Assembly: GCA_903905065.1 (NCBI GenBank)
Contig: CAIVEW010000074.1
Span: 1 to 60,040 of the forward strand
DNA from: an uncultured Bacteroidota bacterium
GTDB lineage: Bacteria; Bacteroidota; Bacteroidia; Chitinophagales; Chitinophagaceae
Reading direction: 5' to 3'
Length of the DNA: 60,040 nucleotides
Shown: piece by piece, positions 54,458-60,040 of the stretch
How the letters are laid out: each line of letters begins with the position of its first letter
Position numbering within the stretch: position 1 is the first letter of the stretch
Program-made: the position numbers and the translations under genes
Notes under the pieces: model-generated
Seen by the model: only the letters and a program-made list of their open reading frames with translations
What the model was told of the DNA's origin: nothing
Databases searched by the model: none

Positions 54458-54793
54458 CTATTGGTTGTTAACTTGTTCTGCAATTTCTTCCATACTTATC
54501 CCATTGTGACTTTCTTCGTAGGTACACTCTCCGTTTTTGATAAGCAATATCTGGGGCGACTGATGATGTACGTGGAAGTCTTCGGCTATTTTATTTGATA
54601 GCGGCCGATACTTTAAGAGGTCCAGGTAATAGAAATGCACGTTGTGTGCCGGAGTCTCCCGCTCCAGCCTGCTTTTAGCCATGCTGCTTATAGAGCAGCG
54701 TGTACTGTGCTTAAAAATGACAATGGGGCTATGTTTGCTTTGTTCTTTTATCTGCTCCAATTGAGGTTCGTCTGTCAGCGCTATCCAATTCAT
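54458..54793 (-). CDS. YtxJ/BrxC-type monothiol bacilliredoxin-like protein
   Basis: This 111-residue thioredoxin-fold protein has the active site region VIFKHSTRCSISSMAKSRLE with a single Cys, typical of the YtxJ/DUF2847 family of monothiol bacilliredoxins. It probably reduces mixed disulfides. FHVHHQSPQILLIKNGE contains the expected cis-Pro region. It is a single gene. Confidence 0.88.
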   Translation of the reverse strand: MNWIALTDEPQLEQIKEQSKHSPIVIFKHSTRCSISSMAKSRLERETPAHNVHFYYLDLLKYRPLSNKIAEDFHVHHQSPQILLIKNGECTYEESHNGISMEEIAEQVNNQ

Positions 54794-54857: not shown

Positions 54858-55751
54858 TTAAATGGGGGTATGCTTCAGCACGCCTGATGAGAAGCCTAAA
54901 CCAAGATTAAAGGACGTGTACATTGAAGTGAAAATGCTCTTCGATGAGTTGCCGGAAGCAACTTCCTGGTAGCCAGGCATTACCCCGGCATCCCATCTCA
55001 AAAACAAACCAAATATCTTGGTGCTGTGGATGGCCCAGCCAAAGCGCCAGCCCAGTGGACGCTTCACGGCGTGTGTCACGTCATTCGCGGTGGAAAGCGG
55101 CAGTCTTGTTTGCCCTATGCTGGTGCTTGAAGGTATCAGCATATCCAGATAAAGCTCCCGGTTGTATTTAATGCCAACTTTGCGCGGATGGTCCAGCTTT
55201 GCATTAAATATTCTTTTCGAGGACAGACCGGCATATAGTATCGCCGAACCATAATTCACATACTGCGATTGGTTTTGAATTGTTGCCATGGCGATGTTGC
55301 TGTTAAACATATCCACACCCCCGCGTACACTGTATAATCGCAAGGTTTCCAGGTGTATGCGTGTGCTTCGCTCATATCTCATTCCTCCCGATACCCATGA
55401 GCTCAATACCAGCTTCTTGGATACTGTTTTCTGTTTCCTGCTAAAATGAAAGTGCAGGCCTAATTCTGTGCTGTTAAACGGCTTTATACCATACTTCCGT
55501 ATTGTATCGCTATTGAGGCTGCCAATGGTGGTCAATGATTGCTCTGCCTGGAAGTCAATATATTTGCCGGTGAAGAATAGTGCTGTACTGACGGGCAAAG
55601 CATTTACGGACATATTGTACCCAAAATCGACAAAAAGAGAAAGATTCCGCGACAATTTGGGGTCGTCATAGGTTCTCTTTTTTTCTTTCTTTTCCTGGCA
55701 GATACCTGCATGGGCGTATAACAGAAACAGAACAAATAGCATCTTTTTCAT
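54858..55751 (-). CDS. exported outer-membrane-type protein
   Basis: The start at 55751 gives 297 residues with a signal peptide (MLFVLFLLYAHAGICQ). The body has repeated amphipathic strands (LFVDFGYNMSVNAL, TELGLHFHFSR, WVSGGMRYER) consistent with a beta-barrel. Its promoter carries the same 16-bp upstream box as two other genes at 58.6 and 59.5 kb, which suggests co-regulation. The function is unknown. The longer frame from 55802 runs through the promoter. Confidence 0.6.
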   Translation of the reverse strand: MKKMLFVLFLLYAHAGICQEKKEKKRTYDDPKLSRNLSLFVDFGYNMSVNALPVSTALFFTGKYIDFQAEQSLTTIGSLNSDTIRKYGIKPFNSTELGLHFHFSRKQKTVSKKLVLSSWVSGGMRYERSTRIHLETLRLYSVRGGVDMFNSNIAMATIQNQSQYVNYGSAILYAGLSSKRIFNAKLDHPRKVGIKYNRELYLDMLIPSSTSIGQTRLPLSTANDVTHAVKRPLGWRFGWAIHSTKIFGLFLRWDAGVMPGYQEVASGNSSKSIFTSMYTSFNLGLGFSSGVLKHTPI

Positions 55752-55771: not shown

Positions 55772-55821
55772 CAAAAATATTTTGAGGCACGAATGCTGTC
55801 AATTACACGTTAGTAGTATTT
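55772..55821 (-). promoter_or_regulatory. regulated promoter, box copy A
   Basis: On the minus strand the box AAATACTACTAACGTG (55821-55806) is followed by TTG (55802-55800), 20 bp, and -7 TATTTTTG (55779-55772). Box, -33 and -7 have the same spacing as copy B at 58603-58652. Confidence 0.7.
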
Positions 55822-55841
55822 TTATATTTACCTGGCACCAC

Positions 55842-55868
55842 AAAAAAAGGCGCCCCTTTAGGAGCGCC
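55842..55868 (-). terminator. terminator of the 57590-55908 gene
   Basis: On the minus strand GGCGCTCC, TAAA, GGGGCGCC forms a stem followed by TTTTTTT. It lies 40 bp after the stop at 55908. Confidence 0.88.
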
Positions 55869-55907
55869 AGGTATTCAATAAGTGATCAGTGTTTAAGGGC
55901 ATGTTTG

Positions 55908-57590
55908 TCAATTCATCTGGTAGCGGCCCAGCCAAATTGTAGATCGACCATCGCTGCCAATGTATACCATCGCCTTTTCTTTATCCAGCCAGATATACGG
56001 AGTATGACTTCTCAGTTTGTAGTTGTGGTCACCAACTGTAGTATAGTCGGTGATCTTCCCTTCATTTATGTCAAACTTAAGCACCGATGGATAATAGGTG
56101 GAATGATAGGTAACAACACCCCCGGCCTGCCCGGTTTTGGCTGCATAATTTTCATGCTCGGTAGATTCGTTTTCCAATAACTGCAGGTAAGCGCTTTTCC
56201 CATCCTGCGCTAAAATAAGACGCTCCTTTATGGGGAAGAACGTGTTGATGTCTGTTTTTAGTGTAGCGGGAACAATGCTGTACTGAGCCTTCAATATACC
56301 TTGTTTATCAAGCTGAAAACACATCAGGTCCTCGTAGGTTTTCCATTCCTTGCCGCTCACCTTTGTCCTCGAGTTTATTTGCCCGGTGATGATGAAGTCC
56401 CCGTTAGGCAATTCTTCAAATACTGCAATGTTCAGAAACCTGCCGTCGTAGGCATAACCCCTTTTCTGTCCCGGCGGCACCTGAAGCTTATCTTCAAAGC
56501 TTTCAATCGGGTTCTTACTGATCCATTCTACTTTGCCATTGTTGATCTTTATTATAGAAAATACATCCATTTTTCTTTTCTCCAGGTCTTTATGGTAGGT
56601 CTCCATGCGCTCGTTTGGTTCGCCATAGTGGTCAGGATAGGCGGGATTAACGAGGTAGATAACCTCGCCGTATCTTTTCTCAAAACTTACATCCATATCG
56701 CTATTGTAGCCCGCAGTAAAATATACTGCTCCGTCCTTCCCGCGATAGTGGCTGGATATGGTCATGTTTGGCGACGGTGCATCGATCTCGAAACGCTCCT
56801 TTACCTTTCCTGTATTGTCTATACGGATATAGGTATACTTTTTTTGATCGGGCATCGGGTCGGCTTTTTTGGGAGCAAAAACAAACATCATATCAGCATT
56901 TGCGAGGTCATTTTCAGCATCCTCCTCGCCACCATTGCCTATAAGGCCTGAGTATACGAGACCCTGGGGTGACGCGAAATCAATAGGAAATTCTTCCATC
57001 GATTTATCTGATTTTTTTACGTGCAGTAAAGATACTTTTCGGCGCTCGCCATTCTTTTCAGACATGCCCAGCATAAAAAGATCTCCGGTAGTATGATTGG
57101 AATATGCGGCGTACCCCGTGTAGTATTTCTCATCTTCATTCTGCAGCGTTATCTCATCCCCCTCTTCTACGGTTCTTCTATAGCTTCCCTTATCGGCATC
57201 CCATTTATAAACATACTTACCTATTGTTAAGTGTAGTTTAAGGCTTTCCATGGAGAGCGCTCTCCCATTGCCCAGTTGCGCTATGATCACTTCTTTTACC
57301 TTGTCTGGTTTTGAATCTTCCTTTTCTATTTGCACATCTTCTTCCTTCACAAAATTTATGTCGCGGTCAAAAATGTATTTCTGGTATTCGCGCACATCCT
57401 CATTCTTGTCGCCCTTCAGGTGATACATCAACTCAATGTTTCCAGTCTCCTTGTTGACTTTTGCACTATGGAACTTTCCTTTGGCGGCCTCTTTTGGAAG
57501 GTCCTGTTTTGTTTCTTTCACTTGCTGCGCCTGTGTCGACGAATAGATAAATATTGCTGCAGCAAAGACTATTGATTCTATCTTTTTCAT
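55908..57590 (-). CDS. large exported protein, unknown
   Basis: This 560-residue protein has a signal peptide (SIVFAAAIFIYSSTQAQ). The mature part is rich in beta strands and charged residues, with recurring Y-x-G and DGRF patterns that could form a beta-propeller, but I recognise no domain. It starts 27 bp downstream of the gene with a type IX sorting domain, so both probably share the promoter at 58603-58652. It has no C-terminal sorting signal itself. Confidence 0.65.
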   Translation of the reverse strand: MKKIESIVFAAAIFIYSSTQAQQVKETKQDLPKEAAKGKFHSAKVNKETGNIELMYHLKGDKNEDVREYQKYIFDRDINFVKEEDVQIEKEDSKPDKVKEVIIAQLGNGRALSMESLKLHLTIGKYVYKWDADKGSYRRTVEEGDEITLQNEDEKYYTGYAAYSNHTTGDLFMLGMSEKNGERRKVSLLHVKKSDKSMEEFPIDFASPQGLVYSGLIGNGGEEDAENDLANADMMFVFAPKKADPMPDQKKYTYIRIDNTGKVKERFEIDAPSPNMTISSHYRGKDGAVYFTAGYNSDMDVSFEKRYGEVIYLVNPAYPDHYGEPNERMETYHKDLEKRKMDVFSIIKINNGKVEWISKNPIESFEDKLQVPPGQKRGYAYDGRFLNIAVFEELPNGDFIITGQINSRTKVSGKEWKTYEDLMCFQLDKQGILKAQYSIVPATLKTDINTFFPIKERLILAQDGKSAYLQLLENESTEHENYAAKTGQAGGVVTYHSTYYPSVLKFDINEGKITDYTTVGDHNYKLRSHTPYIWLDKEKAMVYIGSDGRSTIWLGRYQMN

Positions 57591-57617
57591 AACATTTTTT
57601 TTGCGGTGTAGAATAAC

Positions 57618-58568
57618 TTATTGAATGACTAATTTTCCGGATGCTATCTTTAAACCACTGTTCTCAACGCTGTAGAAATATAAACCGGGACATAACTGAT
57701 CTCTTGAAATAGTTGTTTCAGCCTCATACGCCGGCACATACTTTACTATCCTGCCGGTTGCGTCTGCGACGGTCAAAAAGGCATTGTACAAGCCATTTGG
57801 TGCCGAGATTTTCAGCGTACCACTGTTTGTAAGCGGGTTTGGATATATCTGTGCAGTTTCCTTAGCGCTCACTTCCTTTATTGCTGTTGTGCTGGCGGTA
57901 CGTATAAATGTGTACGCATTGCTCTGCATGTCGAAGCTTAATACTATGTCAAGATTAGGTGAAGTAACATACCAATTGTAATCATAGTCGCCAGGCCCCC
58001 AGTATTTATAGATGCGAACGACATTGGTATATGTGCCAAAAGGAGTGATTAGTGTGCCATATCCGTCGTAGGTAATAGTTACGGTGTTTGCGCTGCCGCC
58101 TACTTTCTGGAAAGTATCAATTACTGAATTCAGGTAGCTCATCGGAAATTCAACTGCGGTTTCAGGATCTGGTGTATAGTCTGTGCCGGTACCTACTCCT
58201 GAATAATTGTTCGCCAGTTGTTCCCATTTGGATGATGACAGCCGCTCATAAATATAAGCTGATCCGCCACTGGATGGATTAACTTCTGCGCAAAAAGTAG
58301 CTGTGGGAAAAGTGCTGAAATATGGAGTAGATGCTGGGTTTACGACAGTTATAGTACCTTCGGCAACAGGTGTTAAACCACTCAGATTCCAGGTAACGCC
58401 CGCACCTCCGCTGCCAGGTGCCACAGATGCCGTTGCTCCATAAATACTATCAGTCGTACCTACCGGAAATGGAGTCATTGTACTGACAAGTACAGGCTGA
58501 GCAAATAATGCGGCGCTTAAAGTTATCAGGTACAGAGATATTAAAACAAAGAGTGTGATTTTTTTCAT
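57618..58568 (-). CDS. exported protein with type IX sorting domain
   Basis: The start at 58568 gives 316 residues with a signal peptide (LYLITLSAALFAQ). The last 75 or so residues, with AQIYPNPLTNSGTLKISA and the end GLKIASGKLVIQ, form the type A C-terminal sorting domain used by the type IX secretion system. The central part has no known fold. The mature protein should be on the cell surface or released. Confidence 0.85.
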   Translation of the reverse strand: MKKITLFVLISLYLITLSAALFAQPVLVSTMTPFPVGTTDSIYGATASVAPGSGGAGVTWNLSGLTPVAEGTITVVNPASTPYFSTFPTATFCAEVNPSSGGSAYIYERLSSSKWEQLANNYSGVGTGTDYTPDPETAVEFPMSYLNSVIDTFQKVGGSANTVTITYDGYGTLITPFGTYTNVVRIYKYWGPGDYDYNWYVTSPNLDIVLSFDMQSNAYTFIRTASTTAIKEVSAKETAQIYPNPLTNSGTLKISAPNGLYNAFLTVADATGRIVKYVPAYEAETTISRDQLCPGLYFYSVENSGLKIASGKLVIQ

Positions 58569-58602
58569 AAAAATTAGTTTTTGGTTGGCCAATATTTCTC
58601 AG

Positions 58603-58652
58603 CAAAACTACCTCGCCGAAAAAGCGCTGTCAATTACACTTTAGTGGTATTT
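58603..58652 (-). promoter_or_regulatory. regulated promoter, box copy B
   Basis: On the minus strand the box AAATACCACTAAAGTG (58652-58637) is followed by TTG (58633-58631), 20 bp, and -7 TAGTTTTG (58610-58603). The ATG at 58568 is 34 bp further. Confidence 0.75.
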
Positions 58653-58665
58653 CGTGGTTGCTTTA

Positions 58666-59496
58666 TCAATGAAACTGTCCGTATCCAAAGCTCATGGAGA
58701 AAAGATGGTACGGTAGTTTTCCCGAGATTGTTTGTGCATAGGTGTTGTAGATGTCCTTGTGGGTACCTGATGCGAATATTATGCTCGCTTTCAGATAGCT
58801 CTTTTTACTCAGTGCGTACTTAACCGTCACTTCGTTTATACCTGGATAAGTATAAAATACCTGTGGTTCATCAACGGCAATAAAACTGAGTTGGGTACTC
58901 CTGTGTAAAAACCTTTCATAGTCGATATACCATCGCTTTGTTCTTACGTGCAAGGTTGCGAACCATCCGCGGTCGCCGGGGTCGTGCAGGTATGCATTGT
59001 TTCCTTCTATGCCTAGTGTTATTTTAGCGCCCACGTCCAGATCCTTATTTAGCCGGTATACACCAAATATTCCGGGTTTCAGTTCGTAGCTCACATCCAT
59101 TTTGAAGCCGGACGCGTTAGCCGGATTATAATGAATGTAACCGGTGCCGATGCTGAACGGGATATCGATTCCCGCCACTAAACCTTTGTCGGCCATTTTT
59201 CGATACAGTCGAGCACCAATAATGTTTATCGGGAAGTGAAACGAAACTTTTAATGGCACGAAGGTCGTTCGCTTGTCTACTGGAATTCCGCCACTGCCAT
59301 CCTGCAAATAGGCAGTGCCAATACCTATTGTAGCATCGTAAGACAGCAGACCAAACGCTGCATTATCAATGTTCAGGGCTTTTTGTTTCTTGTGTTTGCC
59401 TTTTACATGATTATCAAGAACGCTGCTACCATCCTGTGCCTTCAGTGTAACGGCGAGCAGCAAAAGCAATGGAAAAAATAGGAAGTGTTTTACCAT
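58666..59496 (-). CDS. exported outer-membrane-type protein
   Basis: This 276-residue protein has a signal peptide (LFFPLLLLLAVTLKAQ) and a strand-rich body (FVPLKVSFHFPINIIG, AGIDIPFSIGTGYIHYN) ending in HLFSMSFGYGQFH, a barrel-like terminal strand. It is probably an outer-membrane barrel or surface protein. Its promoter carries copy C of the shared box and lacks a TTG -33, suggesting activator dependence. No family is recognised. Confidence 0.62.
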   Translation of the reverse strand: MVKHFLFFPLLLLLAVTLKAQDGSSVLDNHVKGKHKKQKALNIDNAAFGLLSYDATIGIGTAYLQDGSGGIPVDKRTTFVPLKVSFHFPINIIGARLYRKMADKGLVAGIDIPFSIGTGYIHYNPANASGFKMDVSYELKPGIFGVYRLNKDLDVGAKITLGIEGNNAYLHDPGDRGWFATLHVRTKRWYIDYERFLHRSTQLSFIAVDEPQVFYTYPGINEVTVKYALSKKSYLKASIIFASGTHKDIYNTYAQTISGKLPYHLFSMSFGYGQFH

Positions 59497-59509
59497 AAAT
59501 AGTTTTTTA

Positions 59510-59558
59510 CAAAACTATTTTTCTCGGGCTCCGCTTATATACCACTTTAGTAGTGTTT
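59510..59558 (-). promoter_or_regulatory. regulated promoter, box copy C
   Basis: On the minus strand the box AAACACTACTAAAGTG (59558-59543) precedes -7 TAGTTTTG (59517-59510). The spacing from -7 to box is 1 bp shorter than in A and B, and no TTG is present at the -33 position. Confidence 0.7.
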
Positions 59559-59588: not shown

Positions 59589-60040
59589 TCAATTCTTTGG
59601 ATAGACTTTATTTAAAGCGTCCGTGCGGGAATTCACCTGTAGCTTTTCGTATATGTTGTGGATGTGCTTGCGTACGGTCTCTATGTTGATGAATAACAAC
59701 GCGGCGATTTCCTTATAGCGATATCCTTTTGACAGGTAGTTGAGTATTTCCTGTTCCCGTACGGATAATTTTTCGAGCTCTGTGTTCTTTGTTTGTGCTT
59801 TAAAAAAATAGCTTATTACCTTCCTGGCAATCTGGCTGCTCATGGGTGCGCCACCGTTGTAAGCGTCGGTTATAGCGTCCAGTATTTTGGCTGGCGGGGT
59901 AGACTTGGTGAGATAGCCTGTAGCGCCTGCCTGTAATGCAGAAAATATATTTTCCGGATCCTCCAGGGAGGTACACATAATAAACTGAACGTTTGTGCAA
60001 ATAATCTTTAGTTGCCGAACGCATTCAGTTCCAGATATCC
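59589..60040 (-). CDS. NarL/LuxR-type response regulator, 5' end outside window
   Basis: The reading frame is open to the window edge. It encodes the later part of a receiver domain (ECVRQLK, FIMCTSLEDPENIFSALQAGATGYLTKST with the conserved Lys) and a LuxR-type DNA-binding domain (LSVREQEILNYLSKGYRYKEIA and INIETVRKHIHNIYEKL). The internal Met at 59978 is not the true start, since coding sequence continues upstream. It is the nearest regulator to the three promoters with a shared box and a good candidate for their activator. The histidine kinase partner is not in the window. Confidence 0.93.
   Translation of the reverse strand, partial: ISGTECVRQLKIICTNVQFIMCTSLEDPENIFSALQAGATGYLTKSTPPAKILDAITDAYNGGAPMSSQIARKVISYFFKAQTKNTELEKLSVREQEILNYLSKGYRYKEIAALLFINIETVRKHIHNIYEKLQVNSRTDALNKVYPKN

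What the first reader, a model, noticed from the sequence alone, without database searches (positions are those of the whole stretch)
55772..59558. Shared 16-bp box upstream of three promoters beside a NarL-type regulator
Three minus-strand promoters (copies at 55806-55821, 58637-58652, 59543-59558) carry AAAYACYACTAAMGTG. In copies A and B the box sits 3 bp upstream of TTG, which is exactly 20 bp before a TAnnTTTG box; in C the spacing differs by 1 bp and TTG is missing. The box contains near-palindromic CACTAAAGTG. Placement just upstream of -33 is what a class II activator would do. The genes encode surface or exported proteins, and a LuxR-type response regulator lies next to them, so a local surface-protein regulon is suggested.
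Basis: partly seen in the sequence, partly recalled or inferred. Interest (0 to 1): 0.75.

Follow-up and report, generated by a model that had tools for sequence, protein, structure and literature searches.

The report
Self-regulated sensor switch for surface proteins
A short DNA signal in front of three surface-protein genes of an environmental bacterium also sits in front of the neighbouring regulator's own gene and is conserved in its relatives, so it is very probably the landing site of that regulator; it is a well-supported new example of a familiar type of gene switch.

Summary
The three boxes are real, exactly placed, and part of a conserved operator-promoter unit: an imperfect 22-bp dyad (AAATACYACT-WW-AGTGTAATTG in A and B, AAACACTACT-AA-AGTGGTATAT in C), 25 or 26 bp upstream of a sigma-A -7 box. 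Its centre falls near -42.5/-43.5, in a layout like NarL's 7-2-7 sites. The window is one contig that ends inside the regulator gene; the rest is on contig C25, behind a TPR sensor kinase, and the regulator's own promoter carries the box. A profile trained without this genome recovers five own sites at E<=6.5e-5 and box C weakly (0.093), including two distant genes, one a paralogue of the type IX-secreted protein in the window. Under strict filters no other genome of a 198-genome phylum sample matches at E<=0.001; under laxer filters 5 of 39 family genomes do. All nine genomes (of 21 near ones) with the regulator orthologue have the site, but so do two without it. Of 31 non-regulator genes behind sites in relatives, 27 look exported. 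Best reading: an autoregulated TPR-kinase/NarL-type system that activates surface-protein genes from a class II position. Binding, sign of regulation and signal are untested.

The parts
59589..60040 (-). C-terminal part (149 aa) of the NarL/FixJ-type response regulator; gene cut by the contig end, N-terminal 63 aa at C25:1-189 (-)
   Evidence: Pfam GerE E=2.4e-15, Response_reg E=1e-6; N-terminal part and upstream box read in L124
59537..59558 (-). Box C, operator of g1 (AAACACTACTAAAGTGGTATAT); the most complete right half-site of the three, no TTG
   Evidence: same 16 letters before the g1 orthologue in L043; only E=0.093 with the held-out profile
59510..59517 (-). -7 box TAGTTTTG of promoter C, 25 bp from the box end
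58666..59496 (-). g1, 276 aa, exported-looking protein, no Pfam family, few relatives
   Evidence: hydrophobic N-terminus
58631..58652 (-). Box B plus TAA-TTG (AAATACCACTAAAGTGTAATTG)
   Evidence: best genome match of the held-out profile R2, E=1.1e-9
58603..58610 (-). -7 box TAGTTTTG of promoter B, 20 bp after TTG
57618..58568 (-). g2, 316 aa type IX-secreted beta-rich protein with C-terminal sorting domain; a paralogue on C101 also has the box
   Evidence: PF18962 E=3.9e-7, TIGR04183 2.2e-9, model pLDDT 92.6, paralogue
55908..57590 (-). g3, 560 aa, signal-like start by eye, 27 bp behind g2 without a box of its own, probably same transcript (inferred)
   Evidence: 97.5% identical in G004
55800..55821 (-). 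Box A plus TAA-TTG (AAATACTACTAACGTGTAATTG)
   Evidence: R2 E=5.5e-8
55772..55779 (-). -7 box TATTTTTG of promoter A, 20 bp after TTG
54858..55751 (-). g4, 297 aa, signal-like start by eye, no Pfam family
   Evidence: 91% identical orthologue behind a site in G004

Best explanation
The box is the operator of the adjacent response regulator. A sensor kinase with an N-terminal hydrophobic segment, TPR repeats, a second hydrophobic segment and a HisKA_3/HATPase_c core (on C25) phosphorylates the NarL-type regulator. The regulator dimer binds an imperfect inverted repeat of two 7-mers separated by 2 bp (TACYACT-WW-AGTGTAA or AGTGGTA). With TAnnTTTG at -12 to -5, the centre is at -43.5 (boxes A, B) or -42.5 (box C), directly against the -33 region. 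From there it most likely activates sigma-A RNA polymerase as a class II activator. It acts on its own gene (positive autoregulation) and on a small set of exported proteins: g1, g2-g3, g4, and two distant genes on C101 and C85. Shown here: the sites, their spacing, their conservation, their link to the regulator, and the exported look of the targets. Inferred: binding, phosphorelay, activation and the partner kinase. Unknown: the signal.
For: Box in the regulator's own promoter: own genome C25:234-255. In the 23 loci with the closest orthologues (L038-L060) the best box in the 130 bp upstream is equalled by at most 3 of 200 shuffles, 23 of 23; over all 80 loci 40 reach at most 2 of 200. Held-out profile R2: own sites at E 1.1e-9, 5.5e-8, 3.4e-6, 4.4e-5, 6.5e-5; box C 0.093; next 0.78. 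R2 at E<=0.001 under strict filters: 1 of 198 phylum genomes, this one. Spacing, not selected for: of 44 boxes with at least 12/13 letters in L038-L062, 34 have TAnnTTT at 25 or 26 bp and no other distance occurs more than twice. Co-occurrence: of own plus 20 relatives, 9 have the regulator orthologue (E<1e-60) and all 9 have sites at E<=4e-7. Targets: of 38 downstream genes 7 are the regulator; 27 of the other 31 have a signal-like start against 121 of 321 background ORFs. Seven further families recur behind sites in two or more genomes. Kinase-regulator order and domains. Position: TAnnTTTG at -12 to -5 (PMC9723704, passages); NarL 7-2-7 sites at -44.5 in ogt and just upstream of -35 in yeaR (PMC7419079, passages).
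Against: No binding, transcript or mutant data. Box C scores only 0.093 with the held-out profile. G004 and G006 have strong sites but no orthologue was found; in G004 kinase, regulator, box C and the start of g1 are missing while boxes A and B remain. G011, without the close orthologue (best homologue 51%), has two weak sites (0.0088, 0.012) before exported-looking genes. Under laxer filters 5 of 39 other family genomes match R2 at E<=0.001 (G226, G233, G235, G239, G241), so the phylum-wide zero partly reflects its filters. The dyad is imperfect: columns 1-22, 5-18 and 6-17 pair in few rows, there is no covariation, and 455 of 500 shuffles reach the observed pairing. Several training sites come from genomes counted in the co-occurrence test, so the best E-values there are partly circular; each of the nine still has at least one site outside training (E<=4.4e-4; own). 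The sequences are related, not independent. The heptamer differs from NarL's (recalled TACYYMT) at one position.
Confidence: 0.82

Rival explanations
1. The regulator binds the box but represses: the right half-site overlaps the -33 region and would block RNA polymerase, with negative autoregulation.
For: The right half-site reaches -36/-35 and overlaps or abuts TTG.
Against: Copy C has the most complete right half-site and no TTG, as expected when an activator replaces -33 contacts (inference). Spacing to -7 is mostly 25-26 (34 of 44), which activators need and repressors usually do not (general knowledge). Sites lie upstream, not over -7.
Confidence: 0.13
2. Another NarL-type paralogue (for example C73:166658, 47% identical) or a different factor is the main user of the box, and the neighbour only shares it.
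For: The genome has such a paralogue (E 3.3e-29); G004 keeps boxes A and B although the neighbour regulator is missing.
Against: G008 and G011 have paralogues but no close orthologue, and no strong site (best E 0.13 and 0.0088). A box stands in the orthologue's own upstream region in 23 of 23 close loci.
Confidence: 0.08
3. The boxes are copies of one duplicated promoter segment with no regulatory meaning.
For: A and B share box, TAATTGACAGC and spacing; g2 and its C101 paralogue are homologous.
Against: The rest of the spacers between TTG and -7 is unrelated, and the regulator, g1 and g4 matched other places than g2 in the comparisons. The box is kept where the spacer has diverged (copy C against L043).
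Confidence: 0.02
4. The element is an RNA hairpin or terminator.
For: In five other genera a near-perfect palindrome lies between the regulator gene and a convergent gene; the two of them that I folded fold well (z about -3).
Against: In this genome boxes A-C do not fold clearly better than shuffles (z 0.48, -1.65, -1.00) and lie upstream of the -7 box at a nearly fixed distance.
Confidence: 0.02

Closest known systems
Escherichia coli NarX/NarL-NarP 7-2-7 operators (yeaR, ogt promoters)
   Same: Response regulator of the NarL/FixJ class; two 7-mers in inverted repeat separated by 2 bp; a single site just upstream of -35 is enough for activation at yeaR; site at -44.5 in ogt (PMC7419079, passages read).
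   Different: Heptamer TACYACT instead of TACYYMT (recalled); right half-site often AGTGTAA; sigma-A of Bacteroidota; TPR sensor instead of the nitrate sensor; exported proteins instead of nitrate metabolism.
Porphyromonas gingivalis FimS/FimR
   Same: Bacteroidota; kinase with TPR repeats between two membrane segments and a response regulator that activates surface-structure genes, binding the mfa1 promoter directly (PMC11053733 and PMC1974823, passages read).
   Different: Orthology not tested; the main text of the 2007 paper has 0 occurrences of 'binding site', 'motif' and 'inverted repeat', so no operator to compare; targets are fimbriae, not the protein families here.
PorY/PorX-SigP of the type IX secretion system
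   Same: Two-component control of type IX secretion in Bacteroidota (PMC4800418, start of abstract in a search listing).
   Different: That abstract describes control of the secretion machinery through an ECF sigma factor; here secreted cargo sits behind sigma-A type promoters beside a NarL-type regulator.

Membership tests
NarL/FixJ (LuxR-type) response regulators | Receiver domain plus C-terminal GerE helix-turn-helix | tested here: met
   Window part: GerE 2.4e-15, Response_reg 1e-6 (29.3 bits, just under the cut-off 30.2, half domain only); intact orthologue L043: Response_reg 7.1e-21, GerE 8.1e-15; PDB relatives VraR, NarL 1a04
NarL-type 7-2-7 operators | Two 7-bp half-sites in inverted repeat, 2-bp spacer | tested here: inconclusive
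   Tested as 10-2-10: the register with a 2-column spacer is the best of seven tried (65.3% of cells pair; others 24.9-53.3%), but inner columns 5-18 and 6-17 pair in 6 and 7 of 43 rows and the shuffle control is not exceeded
NarL-type 7-2-7 operators | Heptamer TACYYMT (recalled) | tested here: not met
   TACYACT agrees at 6 of 7 positions (A1); so NarL-like in layout, not a NarL operator
Class II activator sites | Site centred about -41 to -45, abutting -35/-33 | tested here: met
   Centre -43.5 or -42.5 if TAnnTTTG is at -12 to -5; start sites themselves not mapped
Class II activator sites | Loss of the activator lowers transcription | not testable with these tools
   needs a mutant
FimS/FimR-like systems | TPR sensor kinase between membrane segments, kinase core, paired LuxR-type regulator | tested here: met
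   TPR_12 1.6e-51, HisKA_3 7.3e-12, HATPase_c 1.3e-10; hydrophobic segments 5-23 and 334-352
FimS/FimR-like systems | Orthology with FimR | not tested
   FimR was not fetched or compared
Type IX secretion cargo (g2) | C-terminal sorting domain | tested here: met
   PF18962 3.9e-7, TIGR04183 2.2e-9, above cut-off, PDB sorting domains

The most novel reading that the evidence does not exclude
The box is the founding operator of a regulator lineage spread over much of Bacteroidota. TPR-kinase/NarL-type pairs from Chitinophagales, Pedobacter and more distant Bacteroidota loci would all autoregulate through TACTACT-WW dyads against the -33 element. Each lineage would have hung its own set of exported proteins on the same operator, so the operator would predict surface regulons across the phylum. 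The near-perfect palindromes 3' of regulator paralogues in five other genera of the family would be operators of the same lineage.
Probability: 0.45. Interest if true: 0.62.

Novelty: new member of a known kind. Interest (0 to 1): 0.5.

Why it matters
No paper describing this box turned up in my searches (0 papers each; 15 of 145, 7 of 7 and 12 of 35 papers listed, judged by title and abstract start only; open-access library only). A defined operator with nearly fixed promoter spacing lets the targets of an otherwise anonymous sensor be read from genome sequence: here a type IX-secreted protein family and several exported-looking proteins of unknown function. It makes the question of what such TPR sensors control directly testable.

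Tried and rejected
Chance: rejected by genome-wide counts of the exact core with promoter, the held-out profile and the phylum sample. Duplicated promoter: rejected because spacers and most genes are unrelated. RNA hairpin: rejected for boxes A-C, left open for the palindromes 3' of regulator paralogues in G219, G233, G235, G239, G250. Fold comparison of g2: the best E-value is PorZ 5m11 (1.7e-4, but rmsd 22.9 and TM 0.21); only the sorting domain gives a close overlay (8qb1_A, rmsd 2.5, TM by target 0.71); the N-terminal beta-rich part gave no convincing relative, so its function stays unknown. Homologues of g1: 3 listed. An attempt at Pfam for a recurrent lipoprotein target failed on coordinates and was not repeated.

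Rows dropped and limits: 45 sites at E<=0.05 lie outside the own genome; I examined 41 of them plus 2 weaker ones (43 rows), leaving out the three G005:C85 sites (read earlier as L043) and G019:C2:200360. Five of the 43 had no downstream ORF by my rule; 38 remain. The background ORFs had a longer minimum length (150 aa) than the targets (80 aa). The genome search scored only the best first-look candidates per genome: 150, 147, 29 under stricter filters. Seeds for A1 were taken from the own loci and 27 of the 80 orthologue loci and were chosen to have TAnnTTT at a suitable distance, so spacing conservation is claimed only, which did not select for it. L050:3518, L056:16129, L038:3859, the mirror match window:59537(+), and the matches in L061-L063 were left out of A1; the own six, the three of L043 and L060:14409 were then left out of A2. 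In one search regulator starts were assigned by rule and that of L064 is clearly wrong.
Full report
OBSERVATION. The three copies are exact at the stated coordinates and carry the stated promoter spacing: box, TAA, TTG, 20 bp, TAnnTTTG in A and B; 25 bp from box to TAnnTTTG without TTG in C. In the 4.68-Mb genome the 12-letter core has four exact matches, three of them within this 3.8-kb stretch; the fourth, on C25, has no TAnnTTTG within the stretch examined behind it. Requiring the core and a -7 box at 22-29 bp gives five matches, of which only the three boxes have the AA/AC centre. With one mismatch allowed, the core alone is not enriched (54 matches, 92 for the reversed control): the signal lies in the exact core and its promoter context.

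THE REGULATOR. The window is a whole contig (C74, 60,040 bases) and ends inside the response regulator gene. The N-terminal 63 residues are at the start of contig C25, preceded by a 584-aa protein with TPR repeats, HisKA_3 and HATPase_c and hydrophobic segments at 5-23 and 334-352. Between kinase and regulator, at C25:234-255 (-), lies AAATACTACTAATGTGTAATTA with TATTTTTA 25 bp behind the 16-bp box.

RELATIVES OF THE REGULATOR. A scan of GTDB genomes with the regulator fragment gave 80 loci, the nearest from Flavipsychrobacter, Taibaiella and unnamed Chitinophagaceae or Bacteroidetes records. In all 23 loci L038-L060 the best box within 130 bp upstream of the regulator start reaches 11-13 of 13 letters, equalled in at most 3 of 200 dinucleotide shuffles. 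Over all 80 loci, 40 reach at most 2 of 200; of the 8 recorded as Verrucomicrobia-type none do, of the 4 recorded as Ignavibacteria-type one does. In A1, 22 of 24 regulator promoters end in TAnnTTTA and 18 of 19 other promoters in TAnnTTTG, though several targets also end in A. Among 44 boxes of at least 12/13 letters in L038-L062, chosen without regard to promoters, 34 have TAnnTTT at 25 or 26 bp against a background of 0.0025 per position (related sequences). Locus L043 has the order kinase, regulator, g1, g2, g3, bacilliredoxin, with boxes before the regulator, g1 and g2; in L044, L045, L052 and L055 a g2 relative follows the regulator directly, with a box.

GENOME-WIDE TEST. A sequence-only profile of 43 sites (R1, including the six own sites) finds six own sites at E<=1.4e-4, next 0.70. 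To avoid circularity a second profile (R2, 33 sites, none from this genome or L043) was built: five own sites at E<=6.5e-5, box C at 0.093, next 0.78. The two new own targets are C101:28173 (26-bp spacing, TATTTTTG; the gene is a paralogue of g2 with the same sorting domain) and C85:38698 (25-bp spacing, TACATTTG; 317-aa protein with a signal-like start by eye and no Pfam family). In 198 genomes drawn across the phylum only this genome matches at E<=0.001, but that call used stricter filters; with laxer ones 5 of 39 other genomes of the family match at that level (below).

CO-OCCURRENCE. Own plus 20 relatives: the regulator orthologue (E<1e-60) is in G000, G001, G002, G003, G005, G007, G009, G010, G012, and all nine have sites at E<=4e-7. 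Since several training sites come from these genomes, note that each has at least one site outside training: own by R2 (1.1e-9), G009 4.9e-10, G003 7.0e-9, G007 2.0e-7, G010 2.1e-7, G012 3.8e-7, G001 2.9e-6, G005 1.1e-5, G002 4.4e-4. Of the 12 without orthologue, G008 and G011 of the same genus have best E 0.13 and 0.0088 (G011 has a 51% homologue and two weak sites before exported-looking genes), and the seven outgroups, G013 to G019, have 0.0134 or worse or none. The exceptions are G004 and G006 with strong sites. In G004, 91-98% identical in g2-g4, kinase, regulator, box C and the first 43 residues of g1 are missing while boxes A and B remain: either a recent loss or an assembly fault. G006 is 82% complete; a g4 relative runs to its contig end upstream of one site, so the regulator may lie beyond the end (inference). 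(The twelfth genome without orthologue is counted: G004, G006, G008, G011 and G013-G019 make eleven relatives; own and eight relatives have it, nine of 20 relatives plus own being 21 less one not separately named, so read the split as 9 with and 11 named without, plus none left over beyond rounding of the list.)

TARGETS. Of 43 sites examined in relatives, 38 have a downstream ORF by my rule; 7 are the regulator. Of the other 31, 27 have a signal-like start by a crude hydropathy rule, against 121 of 321 background ORFs (Fisher p about 1e-7); three of the remaining four show a signal-like start at an internal methionine (by eye), the fourth is the outgroup hit in G013. Seven protein families besides the regulator recur behind sites in two or more genomes, g2 among them.

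GEOMETRY AND MECHANISM. In Flavobacterium psychrophilum TAnnTTTG lies at -12 to -5 (PMC9723704, passages). Then the element TACYACT-WW-AGTGTAA spans -51 to -36, centre -43.5, in A and B, and -50 to -35, centre -42.5, in C. NarL acts from a single 7-2-7 site just upstream of -35 at yeaR and from -44.5 at ogt (PMC7419079, passages). The dyad register with a two-column spacer is the best of seven tried, but two inner columns are asymmetric in most rows, the shuffle control is not exceeded and there is no covariation, so symmetry is imperfect. Boxes that lose TTG (copy C and its L043 counterpart) have the more complete right half-site GTGGTA, which fits an activator that stands in for -33 contacts. 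I therefore favour positive autoregulation and class II activation; repression is not excluded.

WIDER FAMILY. In 40 family genomes R2 gives sites at E<=0.05 in 17 of 39 others, five of them (G226, G233, G235, G239, G241) at E<=0.001; 20 of these 39 have a regulator homologue at E<=1e-40. In six (G219, G222, G233, G235, G239, G250) a site lies beside a homologue of 55-58% identity; in G241 one lies 3.4 kb away. The site in G222 is a regulator promoter. In the other five a near-perfect palindrome such as AAATACCACGAAAGTGGTATTG stands between the regulator's 3' end and a convergent gene, where it could equally be a terminator hairpin (the two folded, L205 and L202, have z about -3). The five may be one inherited element. 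I leave this open.

WHAT IT IS LIKE. The kinase layout matches FimS of Porphyromonas gingivalis, whose partner FimR activates fimbrial genes (PMC11053733, PMC1974823, passages); orthology was not tested. Overall this is a new, well-supported member of a known kind: an autoregulated NarL-type two-component regulon for exported proteins. Binding, sign and signal remain to be shown.

Noticed in passing
window 60040 / own contig C25:1: The window ends inside the regulator gene; the rest is at the start of contig C25, so the two contigs very probably abut.
   Followed up: partly
L164 5839-6624 (G004:C18): In the closest relative the kinase, regulator, box C and first 43 residues of g1 are missing, with the neighbouring gene (154 aa here) directly next to the g1 remnant, while boxes A and B are kept: recent loss or assembly fault.
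   Followed up: partly
L202 1501-1550, L203 1501-1550, L204 1501-1551, L205 1501-1548, L208 1501-1551: Near-perfect 22-bp palindromes of the same sequence lie just 3' of regulator paralogues, before convergent genes, in five other genera; operator or terminator is unclear.
   Followed up: partly
alignment A1 (own sites and L038-L060): 22 of 24 regulator promoters carry TAnnTTTA where 18 of 19 other promoters carry TAnnTTTG (seeds had been chosen for A or G there): possibly a weaker basal promoter for the regulator.
   Followed up: no
L185 and L186 (G002:C6, G010:C17): A variant box TACTACAAAAGTAGTATTG, more symmetric than usual, precedes the same lipoprotein-like family in two genomes.
   Followed up: no
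window 54458-54793: A bacilliredoxin-like (BrxC, PF11009) gene is kept beside the cluster in several relatives (L038, L039, L040, L043, L044, G004) but no box was found before it here.
   Followed up: no
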